The notes beneath the pieces are model-generated. The model did not search any database and was not told the DNA's origin. It saw only the letters and a list, made by a program, of their open reading frames with translations. Positions 29,867 through 61,849 of a stretch of DNA of 64,000 bases are shown here, one piece after another; positions within the stretch are counted from its first letter, which is position 1; each line of letters opens with the position of its first letter. Source of the DNA: Chamaelirium japonicum (Eukaryota > Streptophyta > Magnoliopsida > Liliales > Melanthiaceae). The stretch is taken from contig OX393555.1 in assembly GCA_947650365.1 (NCBI GenBank), forward strand, positions 80,233,995 to 80,297,994, in the 5' to 3' direction. Position numbers and translations under genes: made by a program.

Positions 29867-30744
29867 TGTGGGTATAAATTTTGGCCGGAAGCCTCACAAA
29901 TAGCGGGACCCACCAGCCCTGCCCGTGGGATCCACAAAGACGACAGCGGGACCCACTATCACTGCCTGTTGGATCTACAAAGATGACAGCGGGACCCACC
30001 AGCCCTGCTTGTGGGGTCCACAAAGACGACAGCGGGACCCACCAGACTCGAAGACTCTACACAACTAGTCAATCAAGTCGAGTCGAAAGGATGATCGAAC
30101 TTTAGTTTAGATTGTTGATTCGGATATTGCTTGTTAATGCCTTTGAATTCAAACTTTGAATAAGAAGAGAGAAGCGATTGACACAAAAGATGATATTAGA
30201 GTTCAGCCGAAACCTATGTCTCCGTGCTATAAGGTGCAATCTAAATTCACTGACACTTTTCTCAAAGTGACCTCGATAGGCCGAGTGTCACTGATCTCTT
30301 TGAAAAGTAGATCGAAGGGTTAGGATGTGAGAGCTCTAGGTTTTTTGAAAGTCTGATTCAGCAATCAGAGATCCGATTTTTTCTAGTACACTCATTGGGT
30401 CTGCTATTTATAGATTTTTCTTGAAGGGAAAGTAGACTAAAGGGTAGTTTTTGCAGCTGTCACCTGAATCCCAGCGGTGTTGATGGGTCTCGTCGTCATC
30501 TCGGTAGATCCCACAGGCAGGACTGGTGGGTCCCACCGTCGTCTCGGTGGACCCCACAGGCAGGGCTAGTAGGTCCTGTCGTTACCTCGATGGACCCCAC
30601 AGGCAGGGCTGGTGGGTCCCACTATCATCTTTGTGGATCCTACAGGCAGGGTTAGTGGGTCCCATTGTCGTCTTTGTGGACCCCACAGGCAGGGCTGGTG
30701 GGTCAAACTATTTATGAGGCTTTCGGTCAAAATTTGCACCCACA
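29867..30744. mobile_element. 878-bp insertion element (copy 2, inverted)
   Basis: It has the same length as copy 1 and sits at the mirrored site. Flanks are GCTAA (29,862-29,866) and GCCAA (30,745-30,749), the same 5-bp target duplication with one substitution. The 43-bp minisatellite lies at about 29,905-30,045 and 30,490-30,715 in opposite orientations. Hand comparison of the central 120 bp with copy 1 gives about 11 differences, a rough measure of divergence between the palindrome arms. No coding capacity: the Gly/Pro-rich open frames are minisatellite. Confidence 0.75.
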
Positions 30745-37200: not shown

Positions 37201-39198
37201 TTCTCTCTTTTCTCTTCATTTATCTCTCTGTTCTTTTTTCTCTTCTTTTCCCTTTTCTGTGTTCGTTTCTCTTCATTTTTGTGCGACTGGTCGGTTTGGA
37301 TCGACGTGTTTATGCTGAAAACGTGTTGTGAGAAGAGAGAAGAAGAGAGAAGAGAACGGAGAGATAAACGAAAAGAGAAGAAGTCTTGCTTACGTCCATT
37401 TACCATGGGTATAGGTATGAAGTAAGAAGGAACCAAAATTCCAAAACTCTATTTCTTAATAATATAATTAAATCTCTCCGTTATCTTTTTGATCTATCAT
37501 ATGGATTAGGGTTTCCTATAGATTGCTTAGGCCCTAAGTAAGCTAACCTTATAAATAAATTACGACCCCCTTACGGTGGGGAAAGTTTGATGGCTCTCTC
37601 TTTCTCCCATCTCACAACACATTATCAGCACGAATATGTCGAGCCCAGCCGACCAGTCGCAAAAAAACGGAGAGAGAAACAAAGACAGTAGTGGAGTTTT
37701 AAAATTTAGATTCCTTCTAACTTTACACCTATACCTGTGGCCAATGGACTGAAGCAGGACTTCTTATTTCTTCTCTCTTTATTTATTTCTCTGTTCTCTT
37801 CTATCTTCTCCTATAGATTAGGGTTTCTCATAGATTGCTTAGACCCTAAGTAAGCTTACTCTATAAATAATATACGACTCCTTTATGGTAGGGCATGTTT
37901 GACGACTTTCTTTTTCTCCTATCTCAAAACACGTTATCAGTAGGAAAATATCGAGCCCATCAGACCAGTCGTATGAAAATGGAAAGAGAAACGAAGACAA
38001 AAGTGAAGTTTTGGATTTGAGATTCCTTCTTACTTCACACCTATACCAGTGGCCAATGTACTGGAGTAGGACTTCTTCTCTTTTCTCTCTTTATTTATCT
38101 CTCTATTCTCTTCTCTATTCTGTGGAGTTTTGGAATTTAAATTCCTTCATACTTCACACCTATACTTGTGGCCAATGGACTGGAGCAGGACTTCTTTTCT
38201 CTTCTCTCTTTGTTTATCTATTTGTTCTCTTTTCTTTTCTTCTCTCTCTGTTTTCTTATAATTGGTCGGTTGGGCTCTACATGTTCATGCTGATAACGTA
38301 TTATGAGATAGAAGAAAGTGAGCACCGTCAAACATGCCCTACCCTAAATGGGTCATATATTATTTATATGGTAAGCTTACTTAGGGCCTAAGCAATCTAT
38401 GGGAAACCCTAATCCATAGGAGAAGAGAGAAAAAAATAGAGAGATTTAATTATATTATTAAGAAGTGGAGTTTTGGAATTTAGATTCCTTCTTACTTCAC
38501 ACCTATACCCGTGGCCAATGGACTAAAGTGGGTCTTCTTCTATCTTCTATCTTCGTTTATATTTTTATTCTCTTCTATCTTCTTCTCTCTCCTCTGCCTT
38601 CGTTTCTTTCTCCGTTTTCTTACGACTGGTCGGCTAGGCTCTACTTGTTCATACTGATAACGTATTATAAGATTGGAGAAAGAGAGAGCCGTCAAACGTG
38701 CCCCACCCTAAAGGGGTCCTATATTATTTATAGGGTAAGCTTACTTAGGGCCTAAGCAATCTATGGAAACCCTAATCCATGAGAGAATAGAGAAGAGAAC
38801 GGGGAGATTTAATTATATTATTGAGAAGTGGAGTTTTGAACTTAGATTTCTTCTTACTTCATACCTATACCCGTGACGAATAGACTGGAGCAGGAATTCT
38901 TCTCTATTCTCTCTTCGTTTATATCTCCGTTCTCTTCTTTCTTCTTTTCTCTTCTCACAACATATTATCAGTACGAACATGTCGAGCCCAACTGACCAGT
39001 CGTAAGAAAACGGAGAGAGAAACAAAGATAGATGAGAAAAGAAGAGAGAAGAGAATGGAGACATAAATAAAAGGAGAAGAACCCCTGCTCCAGTCCATTG
39101 GCCATGGGTATAGATGTGAAGTAAAAAGGAATCTAAATTCTAAAACTCCACTTCTTAATATTCATATGACCCCTTTATGGTGGGGCACGTATGACGGG
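34264..39198. repeat. Monomer array organised as a ~3.8-kb higher-order unit (unit 1 and start of unit 2)
   Basis: About 34,950-38,820 is repeated, in the same order, by 38,820-39,201 plus 55,181-58,550. Matching anchors are CCTTTATGGTGGG at 35,351 and 39,172, GAATTATTTAACGG at 36,107 and 55,761, GAGATCCGATGGTGGATAAT near 36,270 and its relative near 55,918, and CCCCCTTACGGTGGGG near 37,566 and its relative near 57,285. With the CACTA element removed the offsets are about 3.67-3.82 kb. The first 410 bases (34,264-34,674) also complete the palindrome. No gene is seen. Confidence 0.7.
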
Positions 39199-39201
39199 TC
39201 T
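39199..39201. other. Left target-site duplication of the CACTA element (TCT)
   Basis: TCT precedes the CACTA terminus and is repeated at 55,181-55,183. A 3-bp duplication is the norm for CACTA transposons. The uninterrupted paralogue near 58,954 reads GACGGGTCTCTCTTTG, with a single TCT. Confidence 0.85.
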
Positions 39202-39660
39202 CACTACAAAAAAAATAGTTATTACCAACGGATAATATCCGTCGATAATAGTAGTTTTTTGTCGGTAATAATTTATAACGACGGAAGAGATTTTCGTCGC
39301 TATTCTGTCGGGAAAAAAGGTGTCGGAAAAAAGATGCGACGGACTAAATACTTCCGTCAGTAATAATAATTAATACCGCCGGTAATATTAGAGCCGTTGA
39401 TAATATTTAAACAATTAATAATAAATATAATATATTATTGCCGACGAAAACTAATTATCCGTCGGCAATATATAAGAGTTTTACCGACAGTTATCATATA
39501 TACCGTCGGTAATTATATATATATTACCGACGGATCTATACCTTACTGTCGGTAATTATATATATATTACCGACGGATATATATTATCCGTCGGCAATTT
39601 ATTAATAATTTAAAAAAAATAAAAAGAGTATTACCGACGGAATATTTAATTTTCGTCTAT
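39202..39660. repeat. Left subterminal repeat region of the CACTA element
   Basis: About 450 bp dense in a motif of the form TTACCGACGGA and its complement TCCGTCGGTAA, often as closely spaced inverted pairs (for example TACCGACGGATATATATTAT followed by CCGTCGG near 39,568). In En/Spm-type elements such subterminal motifs are bound by the TNPA protein. That role here is inferred from position. Confidence 0.85.
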
Positions 39661-39936
39661 AAAAAGTATGTTTTTTTTTAATAAAATTACCTAAATAATG
39701 TTATTTAATTCCTGTGATTTACAACAATACCACAATATATTACCACAATTTATCTACTATTACCACAATTTATAAAATATTACCGCAAATTATCAAATAT
39801 TACCTAAATTTATAAAATATTACAGCAAATTATCAAATATTACCATAATACCCGACAATTATAGACAAGAATAAAAAAAAACCACATATTACAAAATAAT
39901 TTTTACACAATCCAAAACTGAGAGATGATGCATGCC
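39661..39936. repeat. Short AT-rich tandem repeats between subterminal region and last exon
   Basis: Positions about 39,735-39,850 repeat a unit of about 20 bp (ATTACCACAATTTATAAAAT and variants such as ATTACAGCAAATTATCAAAT). If the predicted last exon of the TNPA-like gene is right, this is 3' UTR or downstream sequence. No gene is seen. Confidence 0.5.
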
Positions 39937-40051
39937 CTATCTCAACCACCCCACACGGCCCACCACCAACGCTGGTGCTCTCATCCCCTGACGCCGCCCG
40001 GCTCCTGCAATAAACATGTTTTTGTTAAAAAAATGGTTTATATCTATAACT

Positions 40052-43000
40052 GAGTCTAAGCGTTAAAAAATCATAAGTTAACGTGTTTCGGATTTGAAAT
40101 AGGTTTGGATTCGATCGGATCGGCATCCGATCGAAGTTGCGAGTGAGTTCTAATTTGATATATTAATAATTTACGCTTCGATTGAGATAGGTTCGGATTT
40201 GAAATAGGTTTGGATTCGATCAGATCGTTATCGGATCGGCATTCGATAATTAGAACGTGCAATTATTCCATATTTCGGACTTGCGAGCGAGTTCTAATTG
40301 GATATTTGAACATTTTTCGCTCCGATTCACTGATTTAGAGTCTAAGTGTTAGAAAATAATAAGTTAGCGTGTTTTGGATATGAAATAGGTTTGGATTCGA
40401 TCGGATCGTCATCGGATCGGCATCCGATAATTCAAACTTGGAATTATTCCGTATTTCGGACATGCGAGCGAGTTCTAATTGGATATTTGAACAATTTACG
40501 CTCCGATTCATCGATTTAGAGTCAAAGTGTTGGAAAATCATAAGTTAGCGTGTTTCGGATTTGAAATAGGTTTGGATTCGATCGGATCGTCATCGTATCG
40601 GCATCCGATAATTCGAACTTGGAATTATTCTATATTTCGGACTTGCGAGCGAGTTCTAAATGGATATTTGAACAATTTACGCTCCGATTCACCAATTTAG
40701 AGTCCAAGTGTTAGAAAATCATAAGTTAGCGTATTTCGGATTTGAAATAGGTTTGGATTCGATCGGATAATCATCGGATCGGCATCCGATAATTTGTACT
40801 TAGAATTATTCCGTATTTCGGACTTGCGAGCGAGTTCTAATTGGATATTTGAACAATTTACGCTCCGATTGACCGATTTAGAATCTAAGTGTTGGAAAAT
40901 CATAAGTTAGCCTGCTTCGGATTTGAAATAGGTTTGGATTCGATCGGATCATCATCGGATCGGCATCCAATAATTCGTACTTGTAATTATTCCATATTTC
41001 GGAATTGCGAGCGAGTTCTAATTGGATATTTGAACAATTTACGCTCCGATTCACTGATTTAGAGTCTAAGTATTGGAAAACCATAAGTTAGCGTGTTTTG
41101 GATATGAAATAGGTTTGGATTCGATCAGATCATCATCGGATCGGCATCCGATAATTCAAACTTGGAATTATTCCGTATTTCGGACTTGCGAGCGAGTTCT
41201 AATTGGATATTTGAACAATTTACACTCTGATTCACCGATTTAGAGTCTAAGTGTTGGAAAATCATAAGTTAGCGTGTTTCGGATTTGAAATAGGTTTGGA
41301 TTCGATCGGATCATCATCGGATCGACATTCGATAATTAGAACTTGCAATTATTCCATATTACTGACTTGTGAGCGAGTTCTAATTGGATATTTTAACAAT
41401 TTACGCTCCGATTCACGGATTTAGAGTCTAAGTGTTGGAAAATCATAAGTTAGCGTGTTTCGAATATGAAATAGGTTTGGATTCGATCGGATCGTCATCG
41501 GATCGGCATCCGATAATTCGAACTTAGAATTATTCTGTATTTCGAACTTGCGAGCGAGTTCTAATTGGATATTTGAACAATTTACGCTCCGATTCACCGA
41601 TTTAGAGTCTAAGTGTTGGAAAATCATAAGTTAGCGTGTTTCGGATTTGAAAGAAGTTTTGATTCGATCGGATCGTCATCGGATCGGCATTCGATAATAA
41701 GAACTTGGAATTATTCCGTATTTCGGACTTGCGAGCGAGTTTTAATTGGACATTTGAACAATTTACGCTCCGATTCACCGATTTAGAGTCTAAGTGTTGG
41801 AAAATCATAAGTTAGAGTGTTTCGGATATGAAATAGGTTTGGATTCGATCGGATCATCATCGGATCGGCATCCAATAATTCGAACTTGGAATTATTCCAT
41901 ATTTCGGACTTGCGAGCGAGTTCTAATTGAATATTTGAACAATTTACGCTCCGATTCATCGATTTAGAGTCTAAGTGTTGGAAAATCATAAGTTACCGTA
42001 TTTCATATTTGAAATAGGTTTGGATTCGATCGGATCATCATCGGATCGGCATTCGATAATTAAAACTTGGAATTATTCCCTATTTCGGACTTGTGAGCGA
42101 GTTCTAATTGGATATTTGAACAATTTACGCTCTGATTCACTAATTTAGAGTCTTAGTGTTGGAAAATCATAAGTTAGCGTGTTTCGGATATGAAATAGGT
42201 TTGGATTCGATCGGATCGTCATCGGATCGGCATCCGATAATTCAAACTTAGAATTATTCCGTATTTCAGACTTGCGAGCAAGTTCTAATTGGATATTTTA
42301 ACAATTTACGCTCTGATTCACCGATTTAGAGTCTAAGTGTTGGAAAATCATAAGTTAGCGTGTTTTGGATTTGAAATAGGTTTGGATTCGATCGGATCGT
42401 CATCGAATCAGTATCCGATAATTCATACTTGGAATAATTCCGTATTTCGGACTTGCGAGTGAGTTCTATTTGGATATTTGAACAATTTATGCTCCGATTG
42501 GCCGATTTAGAATCTAAGTGTTGCAAAATCCTAAGTTACCGTGCTTCGGATTTGAAATAGGTTTGGATTCGATCGGATTGTCATCGGATCAGCATTCGAT
42601 AATTCATACTTGTAATTATTCCATATTTCGAACTTGCGAGCGAGTTCCAAATGGTTATTTGAACAATTTACGCTCCGATTCAACGATTTAGAGTTTAAAT
42701 GTTGGAAAATCATAAGTTACCGTGTTTCGGATTTGAAATAGGTTTGGATTCGATCGGATCGACCTCGGATCGGCATCCGATAATTCGTACTTGCAATTAT
42801 TCCGTATTTCGGACTTATGAGCGAGTTCTAATTGGATATTTGAACAATTTACGCTCCGATTCACCGATTTAGAGTCTAAGTGTTGGAAAATCATAAGTTA
42901 GCGTGTTTTGGATTTGAAATTGGTTTGGATTCGATCGGATCGGTCATCGGATCGGCATCCGATAATTCGTATTTGGAATTATTCCATATTTTGGACTTGC

Positions 43001-46000
43001 AAGCGAGTTGTAATTGGATATTTGAATAATTTACACTCCGATTGACCGATTTAGAATCTATGTGTTGGAAAATCATAAGTTAGCGTGCTTCGGATTTGAG
43101 ATAGGTTTGGATTCGATCGGATCGTCATCGGATCGGCATCCGATAATTCGTACTTACAATTATTCCGTATTTCGGACATGTGAGCATGTTCTAAATGGAT
43201 ATTTGAACAATTTACGCTCCGATTCACGGATTTAGAGTCTAAGTGTTGGAAAATCATAAGTTAGCGTGTTTCGGATATGAAATAGGTTTGGATTCGATCG
43301 GTTCATCATCGGATCGGCATCCGATAATTCGAACTTGGAATTATTCTGTATTTCGGACTTGCGAGAGAGTTCTAATTGGATATTTGAACAATTTATGCTC
43401 TGATTGACCGATTTAGAATCTAAGTGTTGGAAAATCATAAGTTAGCGTGTTTCGGATTTGACATAGGTTTGGATTCGATCGGATCATCATCGGATCGGCA
43501 TCCGATAATTCGTACTTGGAATTATTCCGTATTTCGAACTTGCGAGCGAATTCTAATTGAATATTTGAACAACTTACGCTCCGATTGACCGATTTAGATT
43601 CTAAGTTTTTGAAAATCGTAAGTTAGCGTGCTTCGATTTTGAAATAGGTTTGGATTCGATTAGATCGTCATCAGATCAGCATCCGATAATTCGTACTTGC
43701 AATTATTCCATATTTTGGACTTGCGAGCGAGTTCTAATTGGATATTAGAACAATTTACGCTCCGATTGACCGATTTAGAGTCTAAGTGTTGGAAAATCAT
43801 AAGTTAGTGTGCTTCTGATTTGAAATAGGTTTGGATTCGATCAGATCGTCATCGGATCGGCATTCGATAATTTGTACTTGCAATCATTCCGTATTTCGGA
43901 CTTCCGAGCGAGTTCTAATTGGATATTTGAACAATTTACGCTCTGATTCACCGATTTAGAGTCTAAGTATTGAAAAATCATAAGTTACCATGTTTCGGAT
44001 TTGAAATAGGTTTGGATTTGATCGGATCGTCATCGGATCAGCATTCGATAATTAAAACTTGGAATTATTCTGTATTTCGGACTTGCGAGCGAGTTCTAAT
44101 TGGATATTTAAACAATTTACGCTCCGATTCACCGATTTAGAGTCTAAGTGTTGGAAAATCATAAGTTAGCGTGTTTTGTATATGAAATAGGTTTGGATTC
44201 GATCGGATCGTCATCGGATCGGCATCCGATAATTAAACCTTGGAATTATTACGTATTTCGGACTTGCGAGCGAGTCCTAATTGGATATTTGAACAATTTA
44301 CGCTCTGATTCACCGATTTAGATTCTAAGTATTGGAAAATCATAAGTTATCGTGTTCCAGATTTGAAATAGGTTTAGATTTGATCGGATCGTCATCGGAT
44401 GAGCATTCGATAATTCGTACTTTCAATTATTTCGTATTTCGGACTTGCGAGCGAGTTCTATTTGGATATTTGAACAATTTACGCTCCGATTGCCCGATTT
44501 AGAATCTAAGTGTTGGAAAATAATAAGTTAGCATGCTTCGGATTTGAAATAGGTTTGGATTCGATCGGATCGTCATCGGATCGGCATTCGATAATTTGTA
44601 CTTACAATTATTCCATATTTCGGACTTGTGAGCGAGTTCTAAATGGTTATTTGAACAATTTATGCTCCGATTCAACGATTTAGAGTCTAAGTGTTGGAAA
44701 ATCATAAGTTACCGTGTTTCGGATTTGAAATAGGTTTGGATTCGATCGGATCGACATCGGATCGGCATCCAATAATTCGTACTTGCAATTATTCCATATT
44801 TCGGAGTTACGAGCGAGTTCTAATTGGATATTTGAACAATTTACGCTCCGATTCACCGATTTAGAGTCTAAGTGTTGGAAAATCATAAGTTAGCGTGTTT
44901 CGGATTTAAAATTGGTTTGGATTCGATCGGATCGTCATCGGATCGGTATCCGATAATTCGTACTTTGAATTATTCCATATTTCGAACTTGCGAGCGAGTT
45001 GTAATTGGATATTTGAACAATTTACACTCCGATTGACCGATTTAGAATCTAAGTGTTGGAAAATCATAAGTTAGCGTGCTTCGGATTTGAGATAGGTTTG
45101 GATTCGATCGGATCGTTATCGGATCGGCATCCGATAATTCATACTTGCAATTATTCCGTATTTCGGACTTGCGAGCAAGTTCTAAATAGATATTTAAACA
45201 ATTTAAACTTCGATTCACGGATTTAGAGTCTAAGTGTTGGAAAATCATAAGTTAGCATGTTTCAGATATGAAATAGGTTTGGATTCGATCGGATCATCAT
45301 CGGATCGGCATCCGATAATTCGAACTTGGAATTATTCCATATTTCGGACTTGCGAGCGAGTTCTAATTCGATATTTGAACAATTTATGCTCCGATTGACC
45401 GATTTAGAATCTAAGTGTTGGAAAATCATAAGTTAGCGTGTTTCGGATTTGTAATAGGTTTGGATTCGATCGGATCGTCATCGGATCGGCATCCGATAAT
45501 TCATACTTGGAATTTTTCAGTATTTCGGTCTTGCGAGCGAGTTCTAATTGGATATTTGAACAACTTACGCTCCGATTGACCGATTTAGAATCTAAGTGTT
45601 GGAAAATCATAAGTTAGCGTGCTTCAGATTTGAAATAGGTTTGGATTCGATCGGATCGTCATCGGATCGGCATCATATAATTCGTACTTGCAATTATTTC
45701 GTATTTGGGACTTGCGAGCGAGTTCTAATTGGATATTTGAACAATTTACACTCCGATTGACCGATTTAGAGCCTAAGTGTTGAAAAATAATAAGTTAGTG
45801 TGCTTCGGATTTGAAATAGGTTTCGATTCGATCGGATCATCATCGGATCGGCATCCGATAATTCGTACTTGCAATTATTCTGTATTTCGGACTTGCGAGC
45901 AAGTTCTAATTGGATATTTGAACAATTTACGCTTTGATTCACCGATTTAGAGTCTAAGTGTTGGAAAATAATAAGTTAGCGTGTTTCGGATTTGAAATAG

Positions 46001-47422
46001 GTTTAGATTTGGTTTGATCATCATCGAATCGGCATCCGATAATTCAAACTTGGAATTATTCTGTATTTCGGATTTGCGAGAGTTCTAATTGGATATTTGA
46101 ACAATTTACGCTCTGATTCACCGATTTAGAGTCTAAGTGTTGGAAAATCATAAGGTAGCATGTTTCGTATTTGAAATAGGTTTGGATTCGATCAGATCAT
46201 CATCGGATCAGCATTCGATAATTCGTACTTGGAATTATTCCATATTTCGGACTTGCGAGCGAGTTCTATTTGGATATTTGAACAATTTAAGCTCCGATTG
46301 ACTGATTTAGAATCTAAGTGTTGGAAAATCATAAGTTAGCGTGCTTCAGATTTGAAATAGGTTTGGATTCAATCGGATCGTCATCGGATCGGCATCCGAT
46401 AATTCGTACTTACAATTATTCCGTATTTCGGACTTGCGAGCGAGTTCTAAATGGATATTTGAACAATTTACGCTCCGATTCACAGATTTTTAGTCTAAGT
46501 GTTGGAAAATCATAAGTTTGTGTGTTTCGGATTTGAAATAGGTTTGGATTCGATCGAATCGTCATCGGATCGGCATCCGATAATTCGTACTTACAATTAT
46601 TCCGTATTTCGGACTTGCTAGCGAGTTCTAATTGGATATTTGAACAATTTACGCTCCGATTCACCGATTTAGAGTCTATGTATTGGAAAATCATAAGTTA
46701 GCTTGTTTCGGATATGAAATAGGTTTGGATTCGATCGGATCGTCATCGGATCGGCATTCGATAATTTGTAGTTACAATTATTCCATATTTAGGACTTGCG
46801 AGCGAGTTTTAATTGGATATTTGAACAATTTACGCTCCGATTCATCGATTTAGAGTCTAAGTGTTGGAAAATCATAAGTTAGCGTGTTTCGGATTTGAAA
46901 TAGGTTTGTATTTGATCGGATCGTCATCGGATCGGCATCCGATAATTCGTACTTGCAATTATTCCGTATTTCAAACTTGCGAGCGAGTTCTAAATGGATA
47001 TTTGAACAATTTACGCTCCGATTCACCGATTTAGAGTCTAAGTGTTGGAAAATCATAAGTTAGCGTGTTTCAGATTTGAAATAGGTTTAGATTCGATCGG
47101 ATCATCATCGGATCAGCATCCGATAATTCGTACTTGCAATTATTCTGTATTTTGGCCTTTCGAGCGAGTTCTTATTGGAAATTTGAATAATTTACGCTCC
47201 GATTCACTGATTTAGAGTCTAAGTATTGGAAAATCATAAGTTAGCATGTTTCGAATTTGAAATAGGTTTGGATTCGATCGAATCGTCATCGGATCGGCAT
47301 CCGATAATTTGTACTTGCAATTATTCCGTATTTCAGAATTGTAAGCGAGTTCTAATTAGATATTTGAACAATTTACGCTCTGATTTACCGATTTAGAGTC
47401 TAAGTGTTGGAAAATCATAAGT
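40052..47422. repeat. 181-bp satellite array, about 40 copies, inside the CACTA element
   Basis: The block GAGTCTAAGTGTTGGAAAAT recurs every 181 bp, with start points such as 40,338, 40,519, 40,700, 40,881 and so on to 47,396: 39 near-exact periods. A shortened, degenerate unit precedes them at 40,052-40,337. Monomer landmarks are ATAGGTTTGGATTCGATCGG, CATCGGATCGGCATCCGATA, CTTGCGAGCGAGTTCTAATT and GAACAATTTACGCTCCGATT. Copies differ by point changes and rare 1-3-bp indels. All units share one orientation. The frequent 68-codon minus-strand open frames recur only because the unit does. The array ends sharply on both sides within CACTA sequence (predicted intron of the TNPA-like gene). Confidence 0.95.
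41950..45935. repeat. Duplicated ~11-monomer block (period 1,991 bp) within the satellite
   Basis: Rare monomer variants recur at an offset of 1,991-1,992 bp: ATGGTTATTTGAAC at 42,651 and 44,643, AAATTGGTTTGG at 42,917 and 44,908, TTTGAGATAGG around 43,098 and 45,089, AACAACTTACGC near 43,568 and 45,560, AATTAAAACTTGG near 42,057 and 44,050. 1,991 is 11 x 181. The edges are approximate. A shorter third relative may follow (TTCTATTTGG near 46,264, about 10 monomers on). Confidence 0.75.
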
Positions 47423-47524
47423 GTGATAATATGATCTAAACTCAAATTAGTAAGATTCATATTTTTTACTAATATTATAAAGATTAGTAAGTACCTGATC
47501 ATGAGCATGAGCCACCGCTAGACC

Positions 47525-47725
47525 GGCTTATGAAGTCATTAAGCCGATGCTCTAGTTCCCTGCGAGCTTCTCTTTCCTCATCGAGGGCCTTCTTCTCCGC
47601 CTCAACCCTACGCTCGAGGGCCTGCCTCTCCGCCTCAACCCTCTGCTCAAGGGCCTGTCTTTACTCTCGCTCCGCCTCAAACCTCTGCTCGAGGGCCTGC
47701 CTCTTCTCTCGCTCCACATCTAGCG
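47525..47725 (-). repeat. Coding minisatellite in the TNPA-like gene (coiled-coil repeats)
   Basis: Units of about 30-45 bp (core GAGGGCCTGCCTCTCCGCCT) repeat in tandem within exon 6. On the minus strand they encode a repeated heptad-like string rich in Glu, Arg, Ala and Leu (RQALEQRVEAE). A coiled-coil tail suited to multimerisation is likely. One unit has mutated to a stop (47,661-47,663). Confidence 0.65.
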
Positions 47726-49486
47726 CAGACTGCAACTGAGTGATAGCACAGGTCTGGGTGTTCCGTGCCCTCGAGCGCATACCCTCTCGTCCAAAGTAGG
47801 AGGAGGGCATGACTCCAAGGCCCGTACAGAGGACACAGCCGTGCGCGGCAGGTCTGAGCACAGTTTCCATCGCTAAGTCGACAGATACTGAGCTGGAGGA
47901 GGAGCCGGCCTCGCCCGACGGGGTCACCAGAAGTCGCATCCTCTCCTATATGAAAACAACCAATGATATTTAATGATATTTTATGGCATACGTATAAGAA
48001 TATATTAACAATAATTTAATTACTTATCACTTGCGAGGCAACCCTGTCGTCTAGAAATGCCCCATCGGTACGCCGCCTCCTAGAGGCCTCAAAAAGGTCA
48101 ATCCGATTAGGCTCGTGGCCCAAGGACTGTGTCTGTTGGACATATAAAATAAATAGATGAGTTAATATAACATATATAGAGCTTTAAATAATAACAATGT
48201 TTGTATCATTTACCAGCTGCTGGGCAAGCTGTGGCATAGAGGTCCTCCCCTTCACTGGAGCAGGTGTCGTCGAGGCATTTCTATTCTGCTTGCCTTTACG
48301 TGAACTCGCCTGTATCAATCGATTAAATTTTGAAACATCAATACAAATTTTTAGTATAACATTAAAACAAGTACGAATCAATAAAATTATAATTATACCT
48401 GAAAGTGAGGGGTGGCCCAGTGAGCGACCAAAAACTTTAGAATGTGTAGCGGTGGGGCGTCTATCATCCCAGCCACAGCTCGCAACTCCTCAGCCGGCTG
48501 GCCGACCAAGTAACCGTAGAGCTGGTAGAGCTCATGATGAAAATCCCTGTACCGCTCACCCATCATCTTCCACAAGTCCTCTCGATGGGAGTCGGTTTCC
48601 ATGTTCTCCTATTTAAATTTCTCCTGTAAAATCAATTTAGAAACAAGTCATTTTATCAAATCAAATTATAAAGAAGTACGATATTATTCTAAAATGCTTT
48701 AATGAAACTAACGTACCAAAAACACCTGATACATCCTCTCCTTATAGGATGCATCAATATTCTTCCACCCCCTTAACCCCACAATCGGGGTATTCCTCTC
48801 CTCCCGTACTATCAACCGACCCACGTGGTGGTGTCAGAAGCGTGCTCGCCTACAAAGGTCCTGCCGCTCTATTGTAGGGCAAGCGGCTCGCGTAAGGTCG
48901 ACAAGCACCAGGCCGTCGTCATGCCCTGGTCGCCTACGTGCCTGGTGATCCTCGACCCTGCAAATAAAATATACATCAGTACTGAACAAGTATTTACAAC
49001 ATGTATAAAACTTTAGATCTAAACATTTCCTATAGGCGTAGACGCTGTAGCCGAGTGCTGAGCACTGCTCGAAGCTCCGGAGGCTACGACCACATCAGGA
49101 GCTGGAGTGGAGAGAGGTACAACACTACCAGATCCAGACAGCTCGGCCTCGGACCCTGGGGTGGCAGCCGGAGCGCTCCGAGTTACCCCACTCCTGCCTC
49201 TACGAACCCTCAACCGTGATGCCATCTGAAACAGTTTAATTTACATATGAAACAGTAAGATTTACATATGAAACAATATGAAACAGTTTGATTTACATAT
49301 AAAATAGTATAATTTATGAAACAATATGAAACGGTTGATTTATATATGAAACGGTATGATTTACATATGAAACAGTTTGATTTACATATGAAACAGTATA
49401 AAATAATATGATATATATATGAAACAATATGATTTATATATGAAACAATTTGATTTAAATATGAAACAATTTGATTTACATACGGT

Positions 49487-52400
49487 TTAGTCATTTTCTG
49501 TCTCATCTCTGTCACTCTCATCGCATCCCTCATCTATCATTTGATCTGCATTCGCTGTCCAGTTTATATTGTCGACCTCTTTATTTTCGTCGTGCACTGC
49601 GTCGATAATGATTATCTTATCATTCTGGTATGCATCCAAATCATCATCGACAACCCCCACATCCTTGTCTCCCATGTCATAAAAATCTCTGGGTGGTGAC
49701 CTGACTATAAGTTGCCAACCTGGAGAGGTATTATCCGGTGCATAAAATATCGGTTTCGCTTGAGAGGCAAAAATGAATGGATCTTGATATTGGGTATTCA
49801 ATCTCTTACCAGTGTTGATGCTGATAAAACCATATTTATCGACATTATAACCAGTCCCGTGATTATTAACATCATACCAATCGCATTTGAATAATATGAT
49901 CCGATTTTGGCCAAGGAATTTAATCTCGAGAATCTCATTGAGGACGCCGTAGAAGTTGATATTTCCTAATTCTTCTTGCTCACCGTTGACGACACCCCAC
50001 TATTTTGTGTTCTTCGTGATTTTTCACTATCTTTCGTCCGAAATCTATAACCGTTCATGATATAACCATCGAATGATATTGCATCTTGCAAAGGACTACA
50101 AGATAAGCGCCAAAGATCCTCATTCATCAGCGGATCGTGGTTGTCGTACAGCTCTTGTGCCTATAATAACCACATGACATTCATGATATGAACACATAAT
50201 TATTGTTCGGTAATGGATGTCAATAAACTTCAGTAATGATATGAATACTTACGTGTTTCTCGAACCACGATGGGAATTCACGATCATGAATTTGTGGAGC
50301 ATTTCGAGTACCCCGATTATTAATGATGGCTTTATGCATCCTATTTTAAAGGTTTGAATTATATTATAATTAGCACATATACTTAATGAATGGACTAAAA
50401 GAATGAGTAAATGATCGTAAAATGCTTACTCAATGAATGGCCACACTTCATCATATTGGCGCAATACATACATATGTGCCTGTTGAATCTCATGTACAGA
50501 CAATCGATGGGTTTTGCCTCCTCCTACCAGTCTACCCATTTCGGAAAATATAGACAGACCCCCATCGAAGTCTATTGGAACACCGTCATAGTTCCGCTCA
50601 AGTTGATTGAATCGCGTGTCTATACCATGTAGGTATCTTGAGTAGAATGTTAGACATTCTTCTGCTAGGTATCCTTCAGCAATTGATCCCTCCGGACGAC
50701 TTTTATTATGAACATATGATTTCAATATTCGCAAGTACCTAATTTGAGAAAAAGTAATTATGGATAAATACATCAAGAACGATCAAATACATTAAAAAAT
50801 AAGACAAGATGATTACCTCTCGATAAAATACATCTAGCGGTAATGAACTGGGCCGCCGAGTTTAGCCTCATTTGCCAAGTGAACGGTCAAATGCACCATG
50901 ACATCAAAGAAGGAAGGAGGAAATATCATCTCTAGCTTGCACAATGTGATCGTAATATCACTCTCCATCTGATCAAATTGGTCCAGTCTAAGTACCTTCG
51001 AGCACAACTATCTGAAAAAAGTGCTAAGCTCAATTAACGAACCGGACACCTGTTCGGTTAAATTCCCACGTATAGCAAGAGATAACAATTGCTGCATAAG
51101 AACATGACAATCGTGGCTCTTTAATCCAGATAACTTCCGACCGTTCTCTTGCACGCATCGTGCGATATTCGAAGAATAACCGTCTGGCATTTTCACAGAC
51201 CGTAGGAATGCACATAAGGCTGCCTTTTGCTGTGAGCTCATAGTGTAGCATGCAACTGACAACACATACTTATCCCCAATCTCTTAGGGATGAAGTGATT
51301 TTTGGATGCCCAACTCCTTAAGATCGAGACGAGATTTAAGATTATCCTTCGTCTTACCGTCAAGATTCAGCAGTGTTCCTATAATGTTGTCACATATATT
51401 TTTCTCGATATGCATGACATACAAGTTATACCGCAAGAGTAGGCTGCTCCAGTACGGTAGTTTAAATAAAATACTCTTCTTCTTCCAGTTATGCTCATGC
51501 GTAGAATCTTCATACGTTCTCTTCTTTTTACCTTTCCCAAGTGCCACGGCATCAAGCTGATCCAATTCGCACAAGACTTCTACCCCCGAAAGCTGCTCCG
51601 GGGCCTTTGCAAGTTCCTTCTTGCCGTTGAACGCTCTTTTGTTCTACCTCTACTTATGGCCATCAATAAGGAATCTTCGATGGCCCATATAACAGAACTT
51701 GCCTCTGTTCTTTAACGATAATGAATCTGTCTCCTTATTGCATGTAGGGCACGCCAATTTTCCTTTAGTACTCCACCCAGATAAGTTGGCATTTACATGA
51801 AAATCGTTGATGGTCCATAGAAGTGCCGCATGCATCCGAAAATTCTGGCGCAACGATGCATCATACGTATCGGCCCCAACTTTCCATAACTCGTTCAACT
51901 CCTCAATCAACGGCTGCAAGTAAACGTCAATATCATGACCAGGCGACCTGGGTCCGGGAATGAGCAAGGAGAGCATTATATATGGCTTTTTTAAGCACAT
52001 CCAGGTAGGCAAATTGTATGGAACTAGGACAACTGGCCAAATATTGTAAGACACACTCATATTCCCAAAGGGATTAAAACCATCGCTAGCAAACCCTAAC
52101 TTGACGTTGCGAACTTCACATGCGAACTCAGGATAGGTATGATCAAAATCTTTCCACGTCAGAGAGTCGGCCGGATGTCTCATAACCCGTCATCTGTACG
52201 TTCTCGTGCATGCCACCTCATGTGCTCAGCAGTCTTCGATGACATAAACAACCTCTGAAGCCTGTCCCTAAACGGAAAGTATATGAGAACCTTTGCAGAT
52301 ACATTTTTCTTTCTTCGAGTGGTACTAGACTCGGCATCCGTCTCTTTATATCTCATTGCTCCGCATATGTGGCATGACTGCGCATGTTCGTACTCTTTCC

Positions 52401-53085
52401 GGTACAACATACAATCGTTCACGCGTGTATCAATTTTCTCATAACCCAGACCGAGATCTTTAATTGTCTTCTTCACCTTGTAGAATGATTTCGGTACTGT
52501 CTCACCTATAGGAAAAGCCTCTTTCAGCAACTCTACCAATATATTAAATGACTTATTACTCCAACCATTGAGGCACTTCAAATGAAGAAGCTTTACAGTG
52601 AAAGAGAGTTTTGAAAACTTCTCACACCCCGGGTATGGAGGTTGTTCGGCATCCTTAAGCAATCTGTAGAACTTGTCCGCTTCAATATTGGGCTGATCAC
52701 CTGACTGAGTTACCATGCCTATTCCACCTTGCAAATCATGTATCATACCCTGCATGTCATCGTCATCGTCTATATTAATATTATCATCAGCGATCACTGT
52801 ATTTGCAATTTCACCATGAGCTGCCATGGGGACTGCATCTAGCTCCTCACCGTGTGAGAACCAACGGGTATAGCTAATGTCAATGCCACGCATTACCAGA
52901 TCAACCTCACATTCCTCTCGAACCTTCCTAGTCACCCTTTCGCAGTCTATACAGGGACACACAATTTTTTCATCAAGCGGTGCAAGACGCTCAAATGCAA
53001 AATCTAGAAATTTCCTGACTCCTTCTCTGTACTCTTGGCTCATACGATTTGAATTACGCATCCAACTCTTATCGATCGAAGACAT
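49487..53085 (-). pseudogene. TNP2: TNP2-type CACTA transposase, inactivated
   Basis: Catalytic transposase gene. Exons on the minus strand: 53,085-50,817, 50,738-50,430, 50,340-50,253 and 50,160-49,487, with clean GT...AG introns. Order of domains: transposase-associated N-terminus (KSWMRN... CPCIDC... YTRWFSHGE, residues about 6-80), the Tnp2 core (CHICG, MRWHARERT, LGFASDGFNPFGN, DIDVYLQPLIEEL, SGWSTKGKLACPTC), HNWKKKSILF and MHIEKNICDNIIGTLLN, a DUF4218-type part (KSHDCHVLMQQLLSLAIRG, MIFPPSFFDVMVHL, EGSIAEGYLAEECLTFYSRY), and a DUF4216-type C-terminus (FYGVLNEILE, ILFKCDWYD, DPFIFASQAK). Breaks: frameshifts near 52,184 and about 50,000; stops at 51,650-51,652, 51,644-51,646, 51,284-51,286, 51,008-51,010 and 50,834-50,836. 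Domain order is otherwise complete. The family identification is firm. Confidence 0.93.
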
Positions 53086-53110
53086 CTTCGTCTATCTGGC
53101 TATACAACAC

Positions 53111-54161
53111 CTGAAGTAATTTCAAACAATGTTATATGACTCCGTACAATTTCGGTTTCGGTTCCCGGGTATGGAACACCGAACCAAAACTTCTACAGGC
53201 CATCCATATCCCTAATGGATGGGTGTATTATGATGAGTAGACTAGTCATATAGTAAACCTAGGGTTGGTGGCCAGTATTTGAACTGCTGATAGTCCGAAT
53301 GCTAGGCATAGCACCGAAGTTATGCAACAGTAAGTCAACAAGTCAGGGAGCCTCGTCAAGTAAACACTTGGGGTCTAACGGTTCTCTCTGTCGCTCGAGT
53401 AGATTTATGGCTTTACCTCATATCACACCGAACCGACAAAAACCGACTATTTCGGTTTCGGTTTCGGTTTTGGTTTCGGTTTCGGTTTTGATTTTTCGTA
53501 AACCGAAAAAAATATAACCGACAAAACCCACACCAAAACCGACCGACAAAACCGACGCTCACCCTAGTCTAAAAACTACATTTTGCCCCCCATTCCCCCA
53601 TTCAATTCAGTTTTGATAGGATAAAAATTACCAAATGAGGGAATTAAGTAGATGACAAAACGGGTATTGTGCAAACTAGGACTCTCAATTGGGCCGGGCT
53701 AGCCCGATACCCGCCCGTCCGACCCGAAAAAATTTGGGCTGAGCCTTAAATGGGTTTGGGCTGGGCCGAGTTCGGACATAATTTTATACCCGAAAATCAA
53801 TTCGGATTGGGATCGGGCCAGGTTCAGCCCAGCCCATATTCAGCCCGAACCCGAATACATATATATTCAATTAAAAAACCCATACCCTTTCCCAATTTGG
53901 GATTCCCATTTCTCCCAGGTTCAGCCCAGCCCATATTCAGCCCGAACCCGAATGCATATATATTTAATTAAAAAACCCATACCCTTTCCCAATTTGGGAT
54001 TCCCATTCCCCCTATTCAATTCAGTTTTGATAAGATAAAAATTATCAAATAAGGGAATTCAGTAGATGACAAAAGGGGTATTATGCTAACATTTCAAACT
54101 TTAGTATGCAATTTGGAACAAATTAACCTAAGGGTGAAAGGGAGGAGGAGGAGGAGCTCAC
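53111..54161 (-). other. Probable 5' UTR intron of the transposase gene, with internal duplications
   Basis: On the minus strand a donor (CATCTCTG|GTGAGCTCC) at 54,161 and an acceptor (AATTACTTCAG|GTGTTG) at 53,111 would place a 1,051-bp intron in the leader, 25 bases before the ATG at 53,085. Inside are an ACCGAA/TTCGGTTTCGG-rich stretch (about 53,425-53,560), an 82-bp direct repeat (53,591-53,672 and 54,004-54,085), and a 97-bp tandem duplication between them (units starting 53,821 and 53,918). The splice call is by motif only. Confidence 0.4.
53591..54085. repeat. 82-bp direct repeats enclosing a 97-bp tandem duplication
   Basis: Positions 53,591-53,672 and 54,004-54,085 are near-identical (ATTCAATTCAGTTTTGATA, GTAGATGACAAAA). 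Between them GGTTCAGCCCAGCCCATATT starts at 53,821 and again at 53,918. The enclosed sequence is rich in GGGCC/CCCGA motifs. It could be a nested insertion flanked by duplicated sequence, or the product of repeated slippage. Confidence 0.7.
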
Positions 54162-54320
54162 CAGAGATGATCGGCAGGCCTCGAGGAGGAGGAGGAGCAC
54201 TGGCGTCGCAGTCGGTGGCGTGAGAGAGGGGAGGGGTGGCCGAAGGTGCACGGGAGGGGATGGGTGGCCGGCCGGAGGGGGGTTTAGATCGAGAGAGAGA
54301 GAGAGGGAAGGGGAGGAAGT

Positions 54321-54351
<31 letters not shown>

Positions 54352-54600
54352 TAGAGAGAGAGAGAGGGAAGGGAGGCCGGGGAAGGGGGGAGGAAATAGA
54401 GAGAGAGAGAGGGCCGGGAAGCCGGGGAGGGGCGGAGGTCAGGAGGGGGATGGGTGGCCGGAGGGGATCGCCAGGCTGCTGAAGGGGGATGGGGTTACCG
54501 GACGTGGGTTGGGTCGGTGAGAGAGAGAGAGATCGAGAGAGGGGCGCCAGAGGGGTTAGGTCAAAACAGAAAGAGAGAAACAGCTCGCTGGGGTGTATAA
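54162..54600 (-). promoter_or_regulatory. GC- and GA-rich leader/promoter region of the CACTA genes
   Basis: This region contrasts with its AT-rich surroundings: GAGGAGGAGGAGG runs, and a (GA)n microsatellite at about 54,291-54,412. It lies between the right subterminal repeats and the transposase gene, where the shared promoter and non-coding first exon of CACTA elements are expected. A weak TATA-like sequence (AATTATACACC, minus strand) lies near 54,590-54,605. The start site is not defined. Confidence 0.45.
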
Positions 54601-54610
54601 TTAAAGGATT

Positions 54611-55180
54611 TTTACCGACAGAGTTTATTATACCGTCGGTATAAAGTTATTATACCGACGGTAAAATAATGTCCGTCGGTAAAAATGTACGACGAAACAC
54701 AGGGTTCCATTTTTTCTAGAGAGCCGGAAAAAACCCTGAGTTTCGTCGTCGAGTTTTATTGACGGACATTATAATACCGTTGGTATAATAACTTTATACC
54801 GACGGTAAAATAATGTCCGTCGATAAAACTCAACGACGAACTCAGGGTTCTATTTTTTTCAGAGAGCCGGTAAAAACCCTGCGTTTTGTCGTTACATTGT
54901 ACCGACGGACATTATGTAACCGTCGGTATAAAGTCATTATACCGACGAAATTATATTTCTGTCGGTATAAAGTAATTATACCAACGGACATATTAGTTTC
55001 CGTCGGTAAAGATGACTTTACCGACGGATAGTATATCACCGTCGGTAATAAATATGCAAAAAAATTAAAAAATATCTTAGTTATAATACCGACGGAAACT
55101 ACTATTACCGTCGGTAAAATGTATATTATTACCGACGGAAATAGAAATTTCTGTCGGTAAATAACCTATTTCTTGTAGTG
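54611..55180. repeat. Right subterminal repeat region of the CACTA element
   Basis: It is dense in TATACCGACGGTAAAATAAT and TCCGTCGGTAAA motifs in both orientations. A unit of about 160 bp is duplicated (TACCGACGGTAAAATAATGT at about 54,650 and 54,795; AGAGAGCCGG at about 54,720 and 54,860). Within each unit GACGAAACACAGGG and CCCTGAGTTTCGTCGTC can pair as a hairpin. It ends CCTATTTCTTGTAGTG. Confidence 0.85.
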
Positions 55181-55183
55181 TCT
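55181..55183. other. Right target-site duplication of the CACTA element (TCT)
   Basis: TCT directly follows CTTGTAGTG. The sequence beyond it (CCCTTTTTCCTATCTCATAA) continues the monomer that was interrupted at 39,201, as the uninterrupted paralogue at about 58,954-58,980 shows. Confidence 0.85.
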
Positions 55184-58100
55184 CCCTTTTTCCTATCTCA
55201 TAACACGTTATCAGCATGAACATGTCGAGCTCAGCTGACCAGTCACAAGAAAACGGAGAGAGAAACGAAGACAGAAGTGGAGTTTTTGATTTTAGATTTC
55301 TTCTACTTCACACCTATACTCGGGCCAATAGACTAGAGCAGGACTTCTTCTCTATTCTCTCTTTATTTATCTCTCTGTTATCTTTTTTTTTCTTCTCTCT
55401 CTTCTATGGTATTTTCGACTGGAGCAGGACTTCTTCTCCCTTCTATCTTTGTTTATCTCTCTGTTCTCTTCTCTCTTTTGTCTTTGTTTCTTTCTCCATT
55501 TCTTATGACTGGTTGGCTGGGATCGATATGTTCATGCTGATAACATATTGTGAGATGGGAGAGAGCGAGAGCCGTCAAATATGCCCCACCCTAAAGGGGT
55601 CGTATAAATATTGGGTAGTGGAGTTTTGAAATTTTGATTCCTTCTTACTTCACAGCTATACTCTCTTTGTTTTCTTATGACTGGTCGAGTGGGCTTGACA
55701 TGTTCGTGCCAATAACGTGTTATGAAAAGAGAAAAGAGAGAACAGAAGGGAGAGATAAATGAATTATTTAACGGCTGGGCTCGACATGTTTATACTGATA
55801 ACGTGTTGTAAGATGGGAGAATAGGAGAGCCGTCAAATATGCCCTACCCTTTATATTATTTATAGGGTAAACTTACTTAGGGCCTAAATAATCTATGGGA
55901 AACCCTATTCCAAGGGAGAGATCCGACGGTGGATAATGAACTAGAATAAGACTTCTTCTCTCTTTATTTATCTTATTGTTTTCTTCTCTCTTCTTCATAA
56001 TCTTTTGTGGAGTTTTGGAATTTAGATTCCTTCCTACTTCGCACCTATACCCATGGCCAATAGACTGGAGCAGGACTTCTTCTCTTTTCTCTCTTCGTTT
56101 ATCTCCCCGTTCTTTTTCCTGTTCTTCTTTCTCTTCTGTCTTCGTTTCTTTCTTACTTCTATCTTTATTTTCTCTTTGTTTTTTTGTGACTAGTCAGCTG
56201 GGCTCGACATATTTGTGCTGATAACGTGTTATGAGAAGAGAAAAGAAGAGAAAAGAGAACAGAGAGATAAACAAAGAGAGAAGAGAGAAGAAGTCCTGCT
56301 CTAATCCATTCTCCATGGGTATTGGTATGAAGTAAGAAGGAATCTAAATTACAAAACTCCACTTCTTAATAATATAATTATAATCTCTCCATGCGCTTCT
56401 CTCTTCTTCAATGTATTAGGGTTTTCTATAGATTGCTTAGGCCCTAAGTAAGCTTACACCATAAATAATATATGACCCCTTTTGGATGGGGCACGTTTGA
56501 CGGCTCTCTCTTTCTCCCATCTTATAACACGTTATCAGATCCTTTCTTACTTCACACCTATACCGTGGCCAATGGAATAGAGCTGGACTTCTTCTCTCTT
56601 CTCTCTTTGTTTATCTCTCTGGTCTCTTCTCCCTTTTTCTATCTCTTCTGTCTTTGTTTATCTCTCCGTTTTCTTGTAACTGGTTGGTTAAGCTCGAAAT
56701 GTTCGTGCTGGTAACGTGTTGTGAGATGAGACAAAGAGAGAGCCATCAAACATGCCCTACCTTAAAAGGGTCGTATAAATATTAAAAAGTGAAGTTTTGG
56801 ATTTTAGATTCATTCTTACATCACACCTATACCCGTGGCTAATGCACTGGCTATACCCGTGGCCAATGCACTGGAACAAGCCTTCTTCTCTCTTCTCTCT
56901 TCTCTCTTCTCTCTTTATTTATCTCTCCGTTCTCTCCGTTCTTTTCTCTTTTCTTCTCTCTCTACTGTCTTCGTTTATCTTTTTATTTTTTTACGACTGG
57001 TCGGTTAGGGTTGATATGTTCATGCTGATAATGTGTTGTGAGAAAAGAGAAGAAGAGAGAAGAAAATAGAGAGATAAACGAAGAGATAAGAGAGAAGAAG
57101 TCATACTTATGTCCATTTACCATGGGTATAGGTACGAAGTAAGAAGGAACCTAAATTCCAAAATTTTATTTCTCAATAATATAATTAAATCTCTCCATTA
57201 TCTTCTTTATCTCTCATATGGATTAGGGTTTCCTATAGATTGCTTAGGCCCTAAGTCATCTTACCTTATAAATAATATACGACCCCCTTAGGATGGGGAA
57301 CGTTTGACGGCTCTCTCTTTCTCCCATCTTACAAGACATTATCAGCACGAACATGTCAAGCCCAGCTGACCAGTCACAAAAAAATAGAGATAAAATAAAG
57401 ACATAAGTGGAGTTTTGGAATTTAGATTGCTTCTAACTTTATACCTATACCCGTGGCCAATGGACTAGAGCAGGACTTCTTCTCTCTTCTGTCTTCTTTT
57501 ATTTCTCCGTTCTCTTCTATCTTCTCCCATGGATTTGGGTTTCTCATAGATTGCTTAGGCCCTAAGTAAGCTTACCCTATAAATAATATATGACCCCTTT
57601 AGGGTACGGCACGTTTGACTCTTTCTCTTTCTCCCATCTCATAATATGTTATCAGCACGAACATGTCGAGCCCATCCGACCAATCATAAGAAAATGGAGA
57701 GAGAAAAGAAGACAGAAGTGGAGTTTTGAAATTCAGATTCCTTCTTACTTCACACCTATATCCGTGACCAATTGACTAGAGCAGGACTTCTTCTCTTTTC
57801 TCTCTTTATTTATCTCTCTATTCTCTTCTCTCTTCTTCTCTCTCTTCTGTGGAGTTTCAGAATTAAGATTCCTTCTTACTTCACACCTATACCTGTGGCC
57901 AATGGACTGGAGCAGGACTTCTTCTCTCCTCTCTCTTTGTTTATCTCTTTATTCTTTTCTCTTTTCTTCTCTCTCTTTTGTTTTCATTTCTCTCTCTGTT
58001 TTCTTGTAATTGGTCGGTTGGGCTTGACATGTTCGTGCTGATAACGTATTATGAGATAGGAGAAAGTGAGCGCCGTCAAATGTGCCCCACCCTAAAGGGG

Positions 58101-60854: not shown

Positions 60855-61469
60855 CAATAGTATCATCTCAACGTTATTATGATTATCATAGTAATATTAC
60901 TATAATTATTTATTTAATTATTAAATAATTTAATAATTAGATAATTTAATAATTAAGTTCTTAGTAAAATAATTAATTATTTTAATTATTTAATTATCTA
61001 GTTATTTAATTATTTTTTTAATATTAAAAATATAAAGTAAAATAATTAAATAAATATTGAGAGAGAAGAGAGAATACGTCCTGCTCAAGTCCATTCGCCA
61101 TGGGTATAGGTATGAAGTAAGTAGGAATCTAAATTCCAAAACTCCACAGAAAATAAAGAAGAAAAAAGAAAAGAACAGAGGGATAAATGAAGATAGAAGA
61201 AGTCATGCTCTAGTCCATTGGCCACGGGTATAAGTATGAAGTAAGAAGGAATCTAAATTTCAAAAACTCCACTTCGCAATAGTTCATTTTATTTAGATAA
61301 TTCAATAACTATTTATACTATAATAATTATATTTAATTAATTATTTTACTAAAAACTTAATTATTAAATTATTTAAAATATTTAATAATTAAATATTTAA
61401 TTTAATTTAATTAAAAAAATTATTGTAATATTACTATGATAATCATAATAACGTCGAGATGATACTATT
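60855..61469. repeat. AT-rich terminal-inverted module (copy 3)
   Basis: Direct repeat of 33,625-34,263, with the same ends (CAATAGTATCATCTCAACG; CGAGATGATACTATT), AT-rich halves, and monomer fragments in the middle (about 61,060-61,285). It supports a segmental duplication of this part of the palindrome arm. Confidence 0.7.
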
Positions 61470-61849
61470 AGATTCCTTCTTACTTCACACCTATACCCAT
61501 GGCCAATGGACTGGAGCAGGACTTCTTCTTTCTTTTCTCTTCATTTATTTTTTCGTTCTCTCTTCTTCTCTCTCTTCTGTCTTTGTTTCTGTCTTTGTTT
61601 TTTTTTCTCTTCTTCTCTCTCTTCTGTGGACTTTTGGAATTTAGATTCCTTCCTACTTCATACCTATACCTATAGCGAATTGACTAGAGTAGGACTTTTT
61701 CTCTCTTCTCTCTTTATTTATCTCTCCAGTCTCTTCTCTCTTCTTCTCTCTCTTCTGTGGAGTTTTGCAATTTAGATTCCTTCTTACTTTACGCCTATAC
61801 ACGTGGCGAATGGACTGGAGCTGGATTTCATCTCTCTTCTCTCTCAATA
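61470..61849. repeat. Monomer-family pieces, forward orientation
   Basis: Three forward fragments joined at CTTCTGTGGA(C/G)TTTTGG. The last (61,760-61,850) resembles the left-arm sequence near 740-830. No gene is seen. Confidence 0.6.

What the first reader, a model, noticed from the sequence alone, without database searches (positions are those of the whole stretch)
40005..47494. A 7.4-kb satellite array lodged in an apparent intron of a CACTA transposon gene
About 40 head-to-tail 181-bp units lie wholly within one transposon with matching ends and target duplication. Good splice motifs surround the array (donor CAG|GTACTTACT at 47,494, acceptor TTTATTGCAG| at 40,005). The joined frame, apart from one TGA that differs from CGA by a transition, stays open into a short last exon. 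If real, the element could spread a satellite through the genome, or be the place where it was born. This is the strongest candidate for an undescribed system here.
Basis: partly seen in the sequence, partly recalled or inferred. Interest (0 to 1): 0.88.

Follow-up and report, generated by a model that had tools for sequence, protein, structure and literature searches.

The report
Jumping gene carrying its own satellite
A plant jumping gene that carries a long block of a 181-letter repeat has copied itself over a thousand times, so the repeat seems to be spread around the genome by the jumping gene rather than lying in blocks of its own.

Summary
The array is real: about 41 head-to-tail 181-bp units (about 40,052-47,422) inside one CACTA element (39,202-55,180, target duplication TCT). 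It is a standing part of a large family, not a chance insertion. At least 1,210 right and 1,348 left array junctions exist genome-wide, a search for an empty site found none, and 9 of 10 siblings at other sites have perfect 3-bp target duplications. All ten satellite arrays checked for context lie in CACTA elements. The 32,690 satellite 22-mers fit the junction counts, so no large free reservoir is indicated.

The coding-intron reading fails: the 'mutant' TGA is the frame's conserved stop (35 of 35 copies). The array lies 3' of the open reading frame, perhaps in a 3'-UTR intron (untested).

Junction spacing corresponds to roughly 8-54 units. Five of eight arrays other than the window's share an identical consensus and show no positional relatedness, so they were nearly uniform when inserted. 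Seventy places carry one edge of a second array between the two genes; in the copy examined it is inverted.

Quinoa CACTA elements already carry a 3' satellite array (unrelated 171-bp monomer). This is an unusually abundant, element-confined variant of a known kind. Origin and function remain open.

The parts
39202..55180 (-). CACTA element (genes on the minus strand), about 16 kb
   Evidence: CACTA ends, matching subterminal repeats, TCT target duplication; transposase domains
39199..39201 (.). target-site duplication TCT, left copy
55181..55183 (.). target-site duplication TCT, right copy
39202..40004 (.). 3' end region of the element with subterminal CCGACGG/CCGTCGG motifs (6 exact); would hold the proposed last exon at its inner edge
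   Evidence: AG kept in 29 of 30 siblings
40052..47422 (+). satellite array, about 41 units of 181 bp; the same unit phase begins and ends the array
   Evidence: stop TGA 35 of 35, GT 35 of 35, AG 29 of 30; splicing not tested
47424..47494 (-). short AT-rich stretch between the array and the gene; its inner 38 bp were used as the right-junction probe (1,210 places at up to 1 mismatch)
47499..49225 (-). second (tnpA/ORF2-like, coiled-coil) gene in several exons, ending at TGA 47,499-47,501; the window copy has an in-frame TAA
49241..49490 (.). spacer between the two genes; site of the second, inverted satellite array in some siblings (not in the window copy)
49490..53085 (-). tnpD-like transposase gene (TNP2)
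   Evidence: PF13963, PF02992, PF13960; PF13952 below its cutoff
53101..55180 (.). 5' end region with subterminal repeats (12 exact CCGACGG/CCGTCGG)

Best explanation
A CACTA transposon family carries a 181-bp satellite array as a standing internal part, just 3' of its second gene. Shown: the array is inherited with the element through transposition into new sites, its unit number differs between insertions, and in the ten arrays checked the satellite was always inside this family. Shown by unit comparison: arrays of independent insertions started nearly uniform and have since gained mainly private mutations. Inferred: in the active lineage the array is repeatedly re-homogenised and re-sized, by unequal exchange or by slippage and template switching when excision gaps are repaired. 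After insertion a copy is silenced, gets fixed in number and decays, mostly at C and G sites. The window copy is an old insertion, since multiplied with its surroundings by segmental duplication rather than by transposition.
For: Both junctions are conserved: 40 of 40 scored left-junction places (of 3,181 candidates) match over the full 291 bp, which includes satellite, at 95% or more; 40 of 40 scored right-junction places (of 3,283) match at 92% or more. Counts at up to 1 mismatch are 1,210 right and 1,348 left, reversed-pattern controls 0. Satellite units adjoin the junction in 30 of 30 right loci, and 29 of 30 left loci hold at least two unit anchors. Distinct flanks with perfect 3-bp duplications in 9 of 10 siblings. 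Genome-wide 32,690 exact 22-mers, i.e. 24-27 per junction, against 17-24 in the four completely read arrays. 32 of 64 exact right junctions on C1 pair with an exact left junction in the right orientation, opposite-strand control 2 of 64. Same-site copies keep positional orthology (same position 2.1-3.0% different, other positions 7.7-8.5%). Among L069, L070, L071, L072 and the C1:4591 array, between-array distance exceeds the mean of the two within-array distances by at most 0.0035, and their consensuses are identical. L069 shows an 11-unit block period (lag-11 distance 0.020 against 0.058; 0.035 with other unit cuts). C/G sites mutate far more than A/T sites.
Against: Only about a dozen arrays were read to an edge and only a handful in full; junction counts do not prove that every copy holds a full array. 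L033 has only about 140 bp of satellite before unrelated sequence, and L034 and L038 about 0.85-0.9 kb. The C2:27 and E3297 middle arrays are closer within than the star expectation (excess 0.003-0.012) and the window array differs more (0.016-0.037), so lineages have their own array types. One of ten siblings lacked a recognisable right end. The listing is capped and omitted 13 hits that I know exist. Homogenisation in the active lineage is inferred, not observed.
Confidence: 0.8

Rival explanations
1. Chance: a free satellite array was hit by one CACTA element, or one array inserted once into it, and this window merely shows it.
For: The window copy's closest relatives share its insertion site (17 of 30 loci including the window itself), so they alone would not show transposition with the array.
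Against: Thirteen other loci have other flanks (11 sites, since three share one), 9 of 10 tested have perfect target duplications, and junctions number over a thousand. Ten of ten arrays checked for context are in CACTA elements.
Confidence: 0.02
2. Capture: the satellite existed as free arrays, was captured once by an ancestral CACTA element, and the free arrays were later lost. This is the account given for quinoa.
For: The family does capture sequence: a roughly 1.1-kb foreign stretch that looks like a gene fragment sits beside the array in the C2:27 copy, and parts of it edge the array in L071, L073, L082 and E3297. The monomer has no match (E up to 1) elsewhere in the window.
Against: No free array was met. 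The array begins and ends in the same unit phase, which local duplication also gives.
Confidence: 0.4
3. Birth in place: the 181-bp unit was ordinary sequence of this element's 3' region and was amplified there.
For: Confinement to the element; matching unit phase at both edges.
Against: No copy with 0 units was found (exact two-sided pattern, 0 matches); no single-copy ancestor is known. L033 is the nearest to one but is cut by foreign sequence.
Confidence: 0.4
4. The array does a job for the element, for example keeping a chromatin state, acting as an enhancer or buffer, or binding an element protein.
For: It is retained in every junction examined, has a nucleosome-like unit length, and a second inverted copy spread to 70 places.
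Against: The array has no match, exact or with one mismatch, to the element's subterminal CCGACGG/CCGTCGG motif. Unit number varies several-fold and units decay freely after insertion. Retention also follows from descent.
Confidence: 0.12
5. Assembly artefact.
For: Tandem arrays are often mis-assembled, so exact unit numbers may be off.
Against: Junctions and gene sides recur in many separate contigs with different flanks.
Confidence: 0.01

Closest known systems
Chenopodium quinoa CACTA-like element Jozin with captured satDNA (Belyayev et al. 2022, PMC8978399; passages seen)
   Same: A 16.5-kb CACTA with a 5.5-kb array of 32.5 x 171 bp between the coding part and the 3' end; found in several elements; evenly dispersed by FISH.
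   Different: Monomer unrelated (score 15 against a shuffle mean of 17.8; 288 of 300 shuffles reach it). There the array is described as captured and a related free array exists in another species. Here over a thousand junctions, no free array met, and a second inverted array.
Chenopodium CficCl-61-40 satellite derived from Jozin tnp2 (PMC7320549; abstract and outline seen)
   Same: Satellite tied to a CACTA transposon.
   Different: There a roughly 40-bp piece of the transposase gene seeds the satellite; here the unit matches no other part of the window.
Oyster Helentron elements carrying satellite-like repeats (PMC7492417; passages seen)
   Same: A DNA transposon disperses satellite-like arrays, units about 165-167 bp.
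   Different: Non-autonomous Helentrons with mostly short arrays (56% of the surveyed arrays with 2-3 monomers); here arrays of tens of units in a TNP2-encoding CACTA.
Tetris foldback transposon of Drosophila virilis (PMC4079207; listing and start of abstract only)
   Same: Transposon-borne tandem repeats tied to a satellite.
   Different: Foldback element; there it supplied building blocks for a satellite.

Membership tests
CACTA (En/Spm) transposon superfamily | Ends CACTA...TAGTG with 3-bp target duplication | tested here: met
   Window TCT/TCT; 9 of 10 siblings at other sites
CACTA (En/Spm) transposon superfamily | TNP2-type transposase gene plus a second gene | tested here: met
   PF02992 2e-84, PF13963, PF13960; second gene read as exons, without a Pfam match for its last exon
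CACTA (En/Spm) transposon superfamily | Subterminal repeated motifs at both ends | tested here: met
   CCGACGG/CCGTCGG: 6 exact in the 3' end, 12 in the 5' end, 0 in the array
Satellite DNA | Long head-to-tail arrays of a unit over 100 bp | tested here: met
   37 of 40 spacings exactly 181 bp; full arrays of 20-31 analysed units in L070-L072
Satellite DNA | Independent large arrays (heterochromatic or centromeric blocks) | tested here: inconclusive
   None among ten arrays checked for context; 22-mer count fits CACTA copies; no full genome annotation possible
CACTA with 3' satellite array (quinoa type) | Array between coding region and 3' end | tested here: met
   Array starts 77 bp 3' of the stop codon and ends about 850 bp before the 3' end
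CACTA with 3' satellite array (quinoa type) | Related monomer | tested here: not met
   No similarity above shuffles
Spliceosomal intron | Splicing in transcripts | not testable with these tools
   No RNA data; GT 35 of 35, AG 29 of 30

The most novel reading that the evidence does not exclude
The transposon is the satellite's only home and its homogeniser: each active copy rebuilds a near-uniform array during transposition and gap repair, so that nearly all of this satellite in a 1.5-Gb genome is produced and dispersed by the element, and the array has also copied itself, inverted, into a second place within the element.
Probability: 0.25. Interest if true: 0.75.

Novelty: new variant of a known kind. 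Interest (0 to 1): 0.5.

Why it matters
How satellites arise, stay uniform and spread is an open question. Here the same array sits in more than a thousand mobile copies of known boundaries, many with their own insertion site, so the state of the array at each insertion can be read off. Independent arrays look near-uniform at birth, which places homogenisation in the active lineage rather than in the dispersed copies. Array size did not prevent large copy number; passages of PMC7492417 cite a model in which more repeats mean less mobility.

Tried and rejected
Coding-sequence intron: rejected because the TGA is conserved. Array as a platform for the subterminal motif: no motif in the array. Origin of the monomer elsewhere in the window: no match. 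Kinship with the quinoa monomer: none. L084 first looked like an array-free sibling (noted); fetching 4 kb more showed an array beyond about 1.1 kb of foreign sequence, so that note is withdrawn. L083 is the same element as L056, so the five extra junction samples are four new elements. E3297, with the tnpD gene gone, looked like a subfamily; its deletion junction occurs once. Quantisation of C1 array lengths around the window's offset: 6 of 30 within 20 bp, 6.8 expected, so not shown; many residuals gather near +57 to +66 instead, which I ascribe to edge variants without test. Rfam: no match in 39,000-58,000. Papers: searches; 'CACTA' with '181 bp' and 'satellite' gave 0 papers; the search library holds only open-licence PMC papers. 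The organism was not identified.

Full report
What is there. The window holds a CACTA transposon from 39,202 to 55,180, with CACTA ends and a TCT duplication, a TNP2 transposase gene and a second gene, both on the minus strand. Between the end of the second gene and the 3' end lies an array of 181-bp units from about 40,052 to 47,422: 41 anchors, 37 of 40 spacings exactly 181 bp. The unit phase is the same at both edges. Within the array, units differ by about 9.7% on average with no dependence on distance.

The intron claim. The second gene's frame ends at TGA, four bases before the proposed donor. In 35 copies read, the codon is TGA in 35; 16 of these are same-site copies of the window element. 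The GT is present in 35 of 35 and the acceptor AG in 29 of 30. The array therefore lies 3' of the open reading frame. A 3'-UTR intron is possible but untested.

Siblings. Searching with the left junction gave 40 scored places of 3,181 candidates, every one full length at 95-100%. The right junction gave 40 of 3,283 at 92-100%. Exact-type patterns count 1,348 left and 1,210 right junctions at up to one mismatch, with reversed controls at 0. Satellite units adjoin the right junction in 30 of 30 loci. On the left, 29 of 30 loci hold at least two unit anchors; L033 has about 140 bp of satellite and then unrelated sequence, and L034 and L038 about 0.85-0.9 kb. A two-sided pattern for an empty site found nothing.

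Transposition or duplication. Of 30 left loci, 17 (the window included) have the same flank: they are one insertion multiplied with its surroundings. Their spacings on C1, C2, C3, C7 and C10 run from 0.63 to 1.51 Mb. The other 13 loci lie at 11 sites. Of ten siblings tested at both ends, nine show perfect 3-bp duplications with different flanks; in one, C1:83052626, no right end was recognised. So the array moves with the element.

Array size. Twenty-four of 40 left junctions pair with a scored right junction. Eight of those are at other sites, with inferred arrays of 4.1-9.9 kb. Among the 16 same-site copies, the lengths cluster at the window's value, one unit less, and in one case eight units more; two are 20.7 kb and were not examined. 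On C1, 32 of 64 exact right junctions pair with an exact left one: 29 inner distances of 1.4-7.7 kb and three of 13.5-18.9 kb. Distances may include inserts.

No free arrays met. Four satellite hits picked that belonged to no element all lie in CACTA elements with the same architecture. The six clusters in the capped list also lie in CACTA elements. One of those six is the second array of the same element as another; for the last, only one edge was seen. The list is incomplete: it omits 13 known hits. Genome-wide there are 32,690 exact 22-mers, 24-27 per junction; four fully read arrays hold 24, 24, 20 and 17. One array-chosen element, L071, has lost the right-junction probe, so right junctions are undercounted.

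How arrays evolve. In same-site copies, the unit at the same position differs by 2.1-3.0% and units at other positions by 7.7-8.5%, as inheritance by duplication predicts. Independent insertions behave differently. For L069, L070, L071, L072 and C1:4591 the between-array distance exceeds the mean of the two within-array distances by at most 0.0035, and their consensuses are identical. The C2:27 and E3297 arrays differ by 2-3 consensus positions from these and the window's by 5, with larger excesses. Most variants inside arrays are singletons, for example 39 of 66 in L070. This fits arrays that were nearly uniform at insertion, and lineage-specific turnover before it. L069 shows an 11-unit block period. 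Mutations fall mainly on C and G: in L070-L072, CpG transitions 3.9-4.9% per site against 0.1-0.3% for A/T transitions. I read that as cytosine methylation and deamination (inference).

A second array. In the element at C1:422-433 kb a second array sits in the spacer between the two genes, in the opposite orientation. One edge of it recurs at 70 places, 58 of them exact. On C1, 9 of 13 such places lie 1.90-1.98 kb from an exact right junction in the same orientation. Only this element was read on both sides. E3297 lacks the transposase gene and has arrays on both sides of the second gene; its deletion junction occurs once.

Verdict. The closest known case is quinoa Jozin (PMC8978399, passages): the same architecture with an unrelated monomer. 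The finding is a new variant of a known kind, notable for abundance, confinement and readable array history. Bits of the argument that are inference: homogenisation in the active lineage, the mechanism of re-sizing, and silencing.

Noticed in passing
C1:428,500-430,200 of G000 (L076, L079); related site in the window 49,241-49,490: Second satellite array in the spacer between the two CACTA genes, inverted relative to the 3' array; one edge found at 70 places genome-wide.
   Followed up: partly
L078+L074+L077 (C1:3,295,000-3,303,500): CACTA derivative without the transposase gene and with satellite arrays on both sides of the second gene; its deletion junction is unique.
   Followed up: partly
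L086/L084 (C2:27,282,460-27,283,600), also edges in L071, L073, L082, L077: A roughly 1.1-kb foreign stretch that looks like a host gene fragment lies between the array and the second gene; remnants edge the array in other copies. Its count was asked for but not answered.
   Followed up: partly
window flanks 1-39,201 and 55,184-64,000: The window CACTA and at least 16 siblings share one insertion site and recur 0.63-1.51 Mb apart on C1, C2, C3, C7 and C10, which points to Mb-scale segmental duplications.
   Followed up: no
L034 (C9:69,545,403-69,549,672): Short internal-deletion derivative: about five units of array run straight into the transposase gene, with a perfect CCA duplication.
   Followed up: no
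L033 (C11:55,570,205): Only about 140 bp of satellite after the left edge, then unrelated sequence; not followed further.
   Followed up: no
window 3,894-4,700 and 29,902-30,704: G+C-rich 43-bp tandem repeats in the flanking repeat landscape.
   Followed up: no
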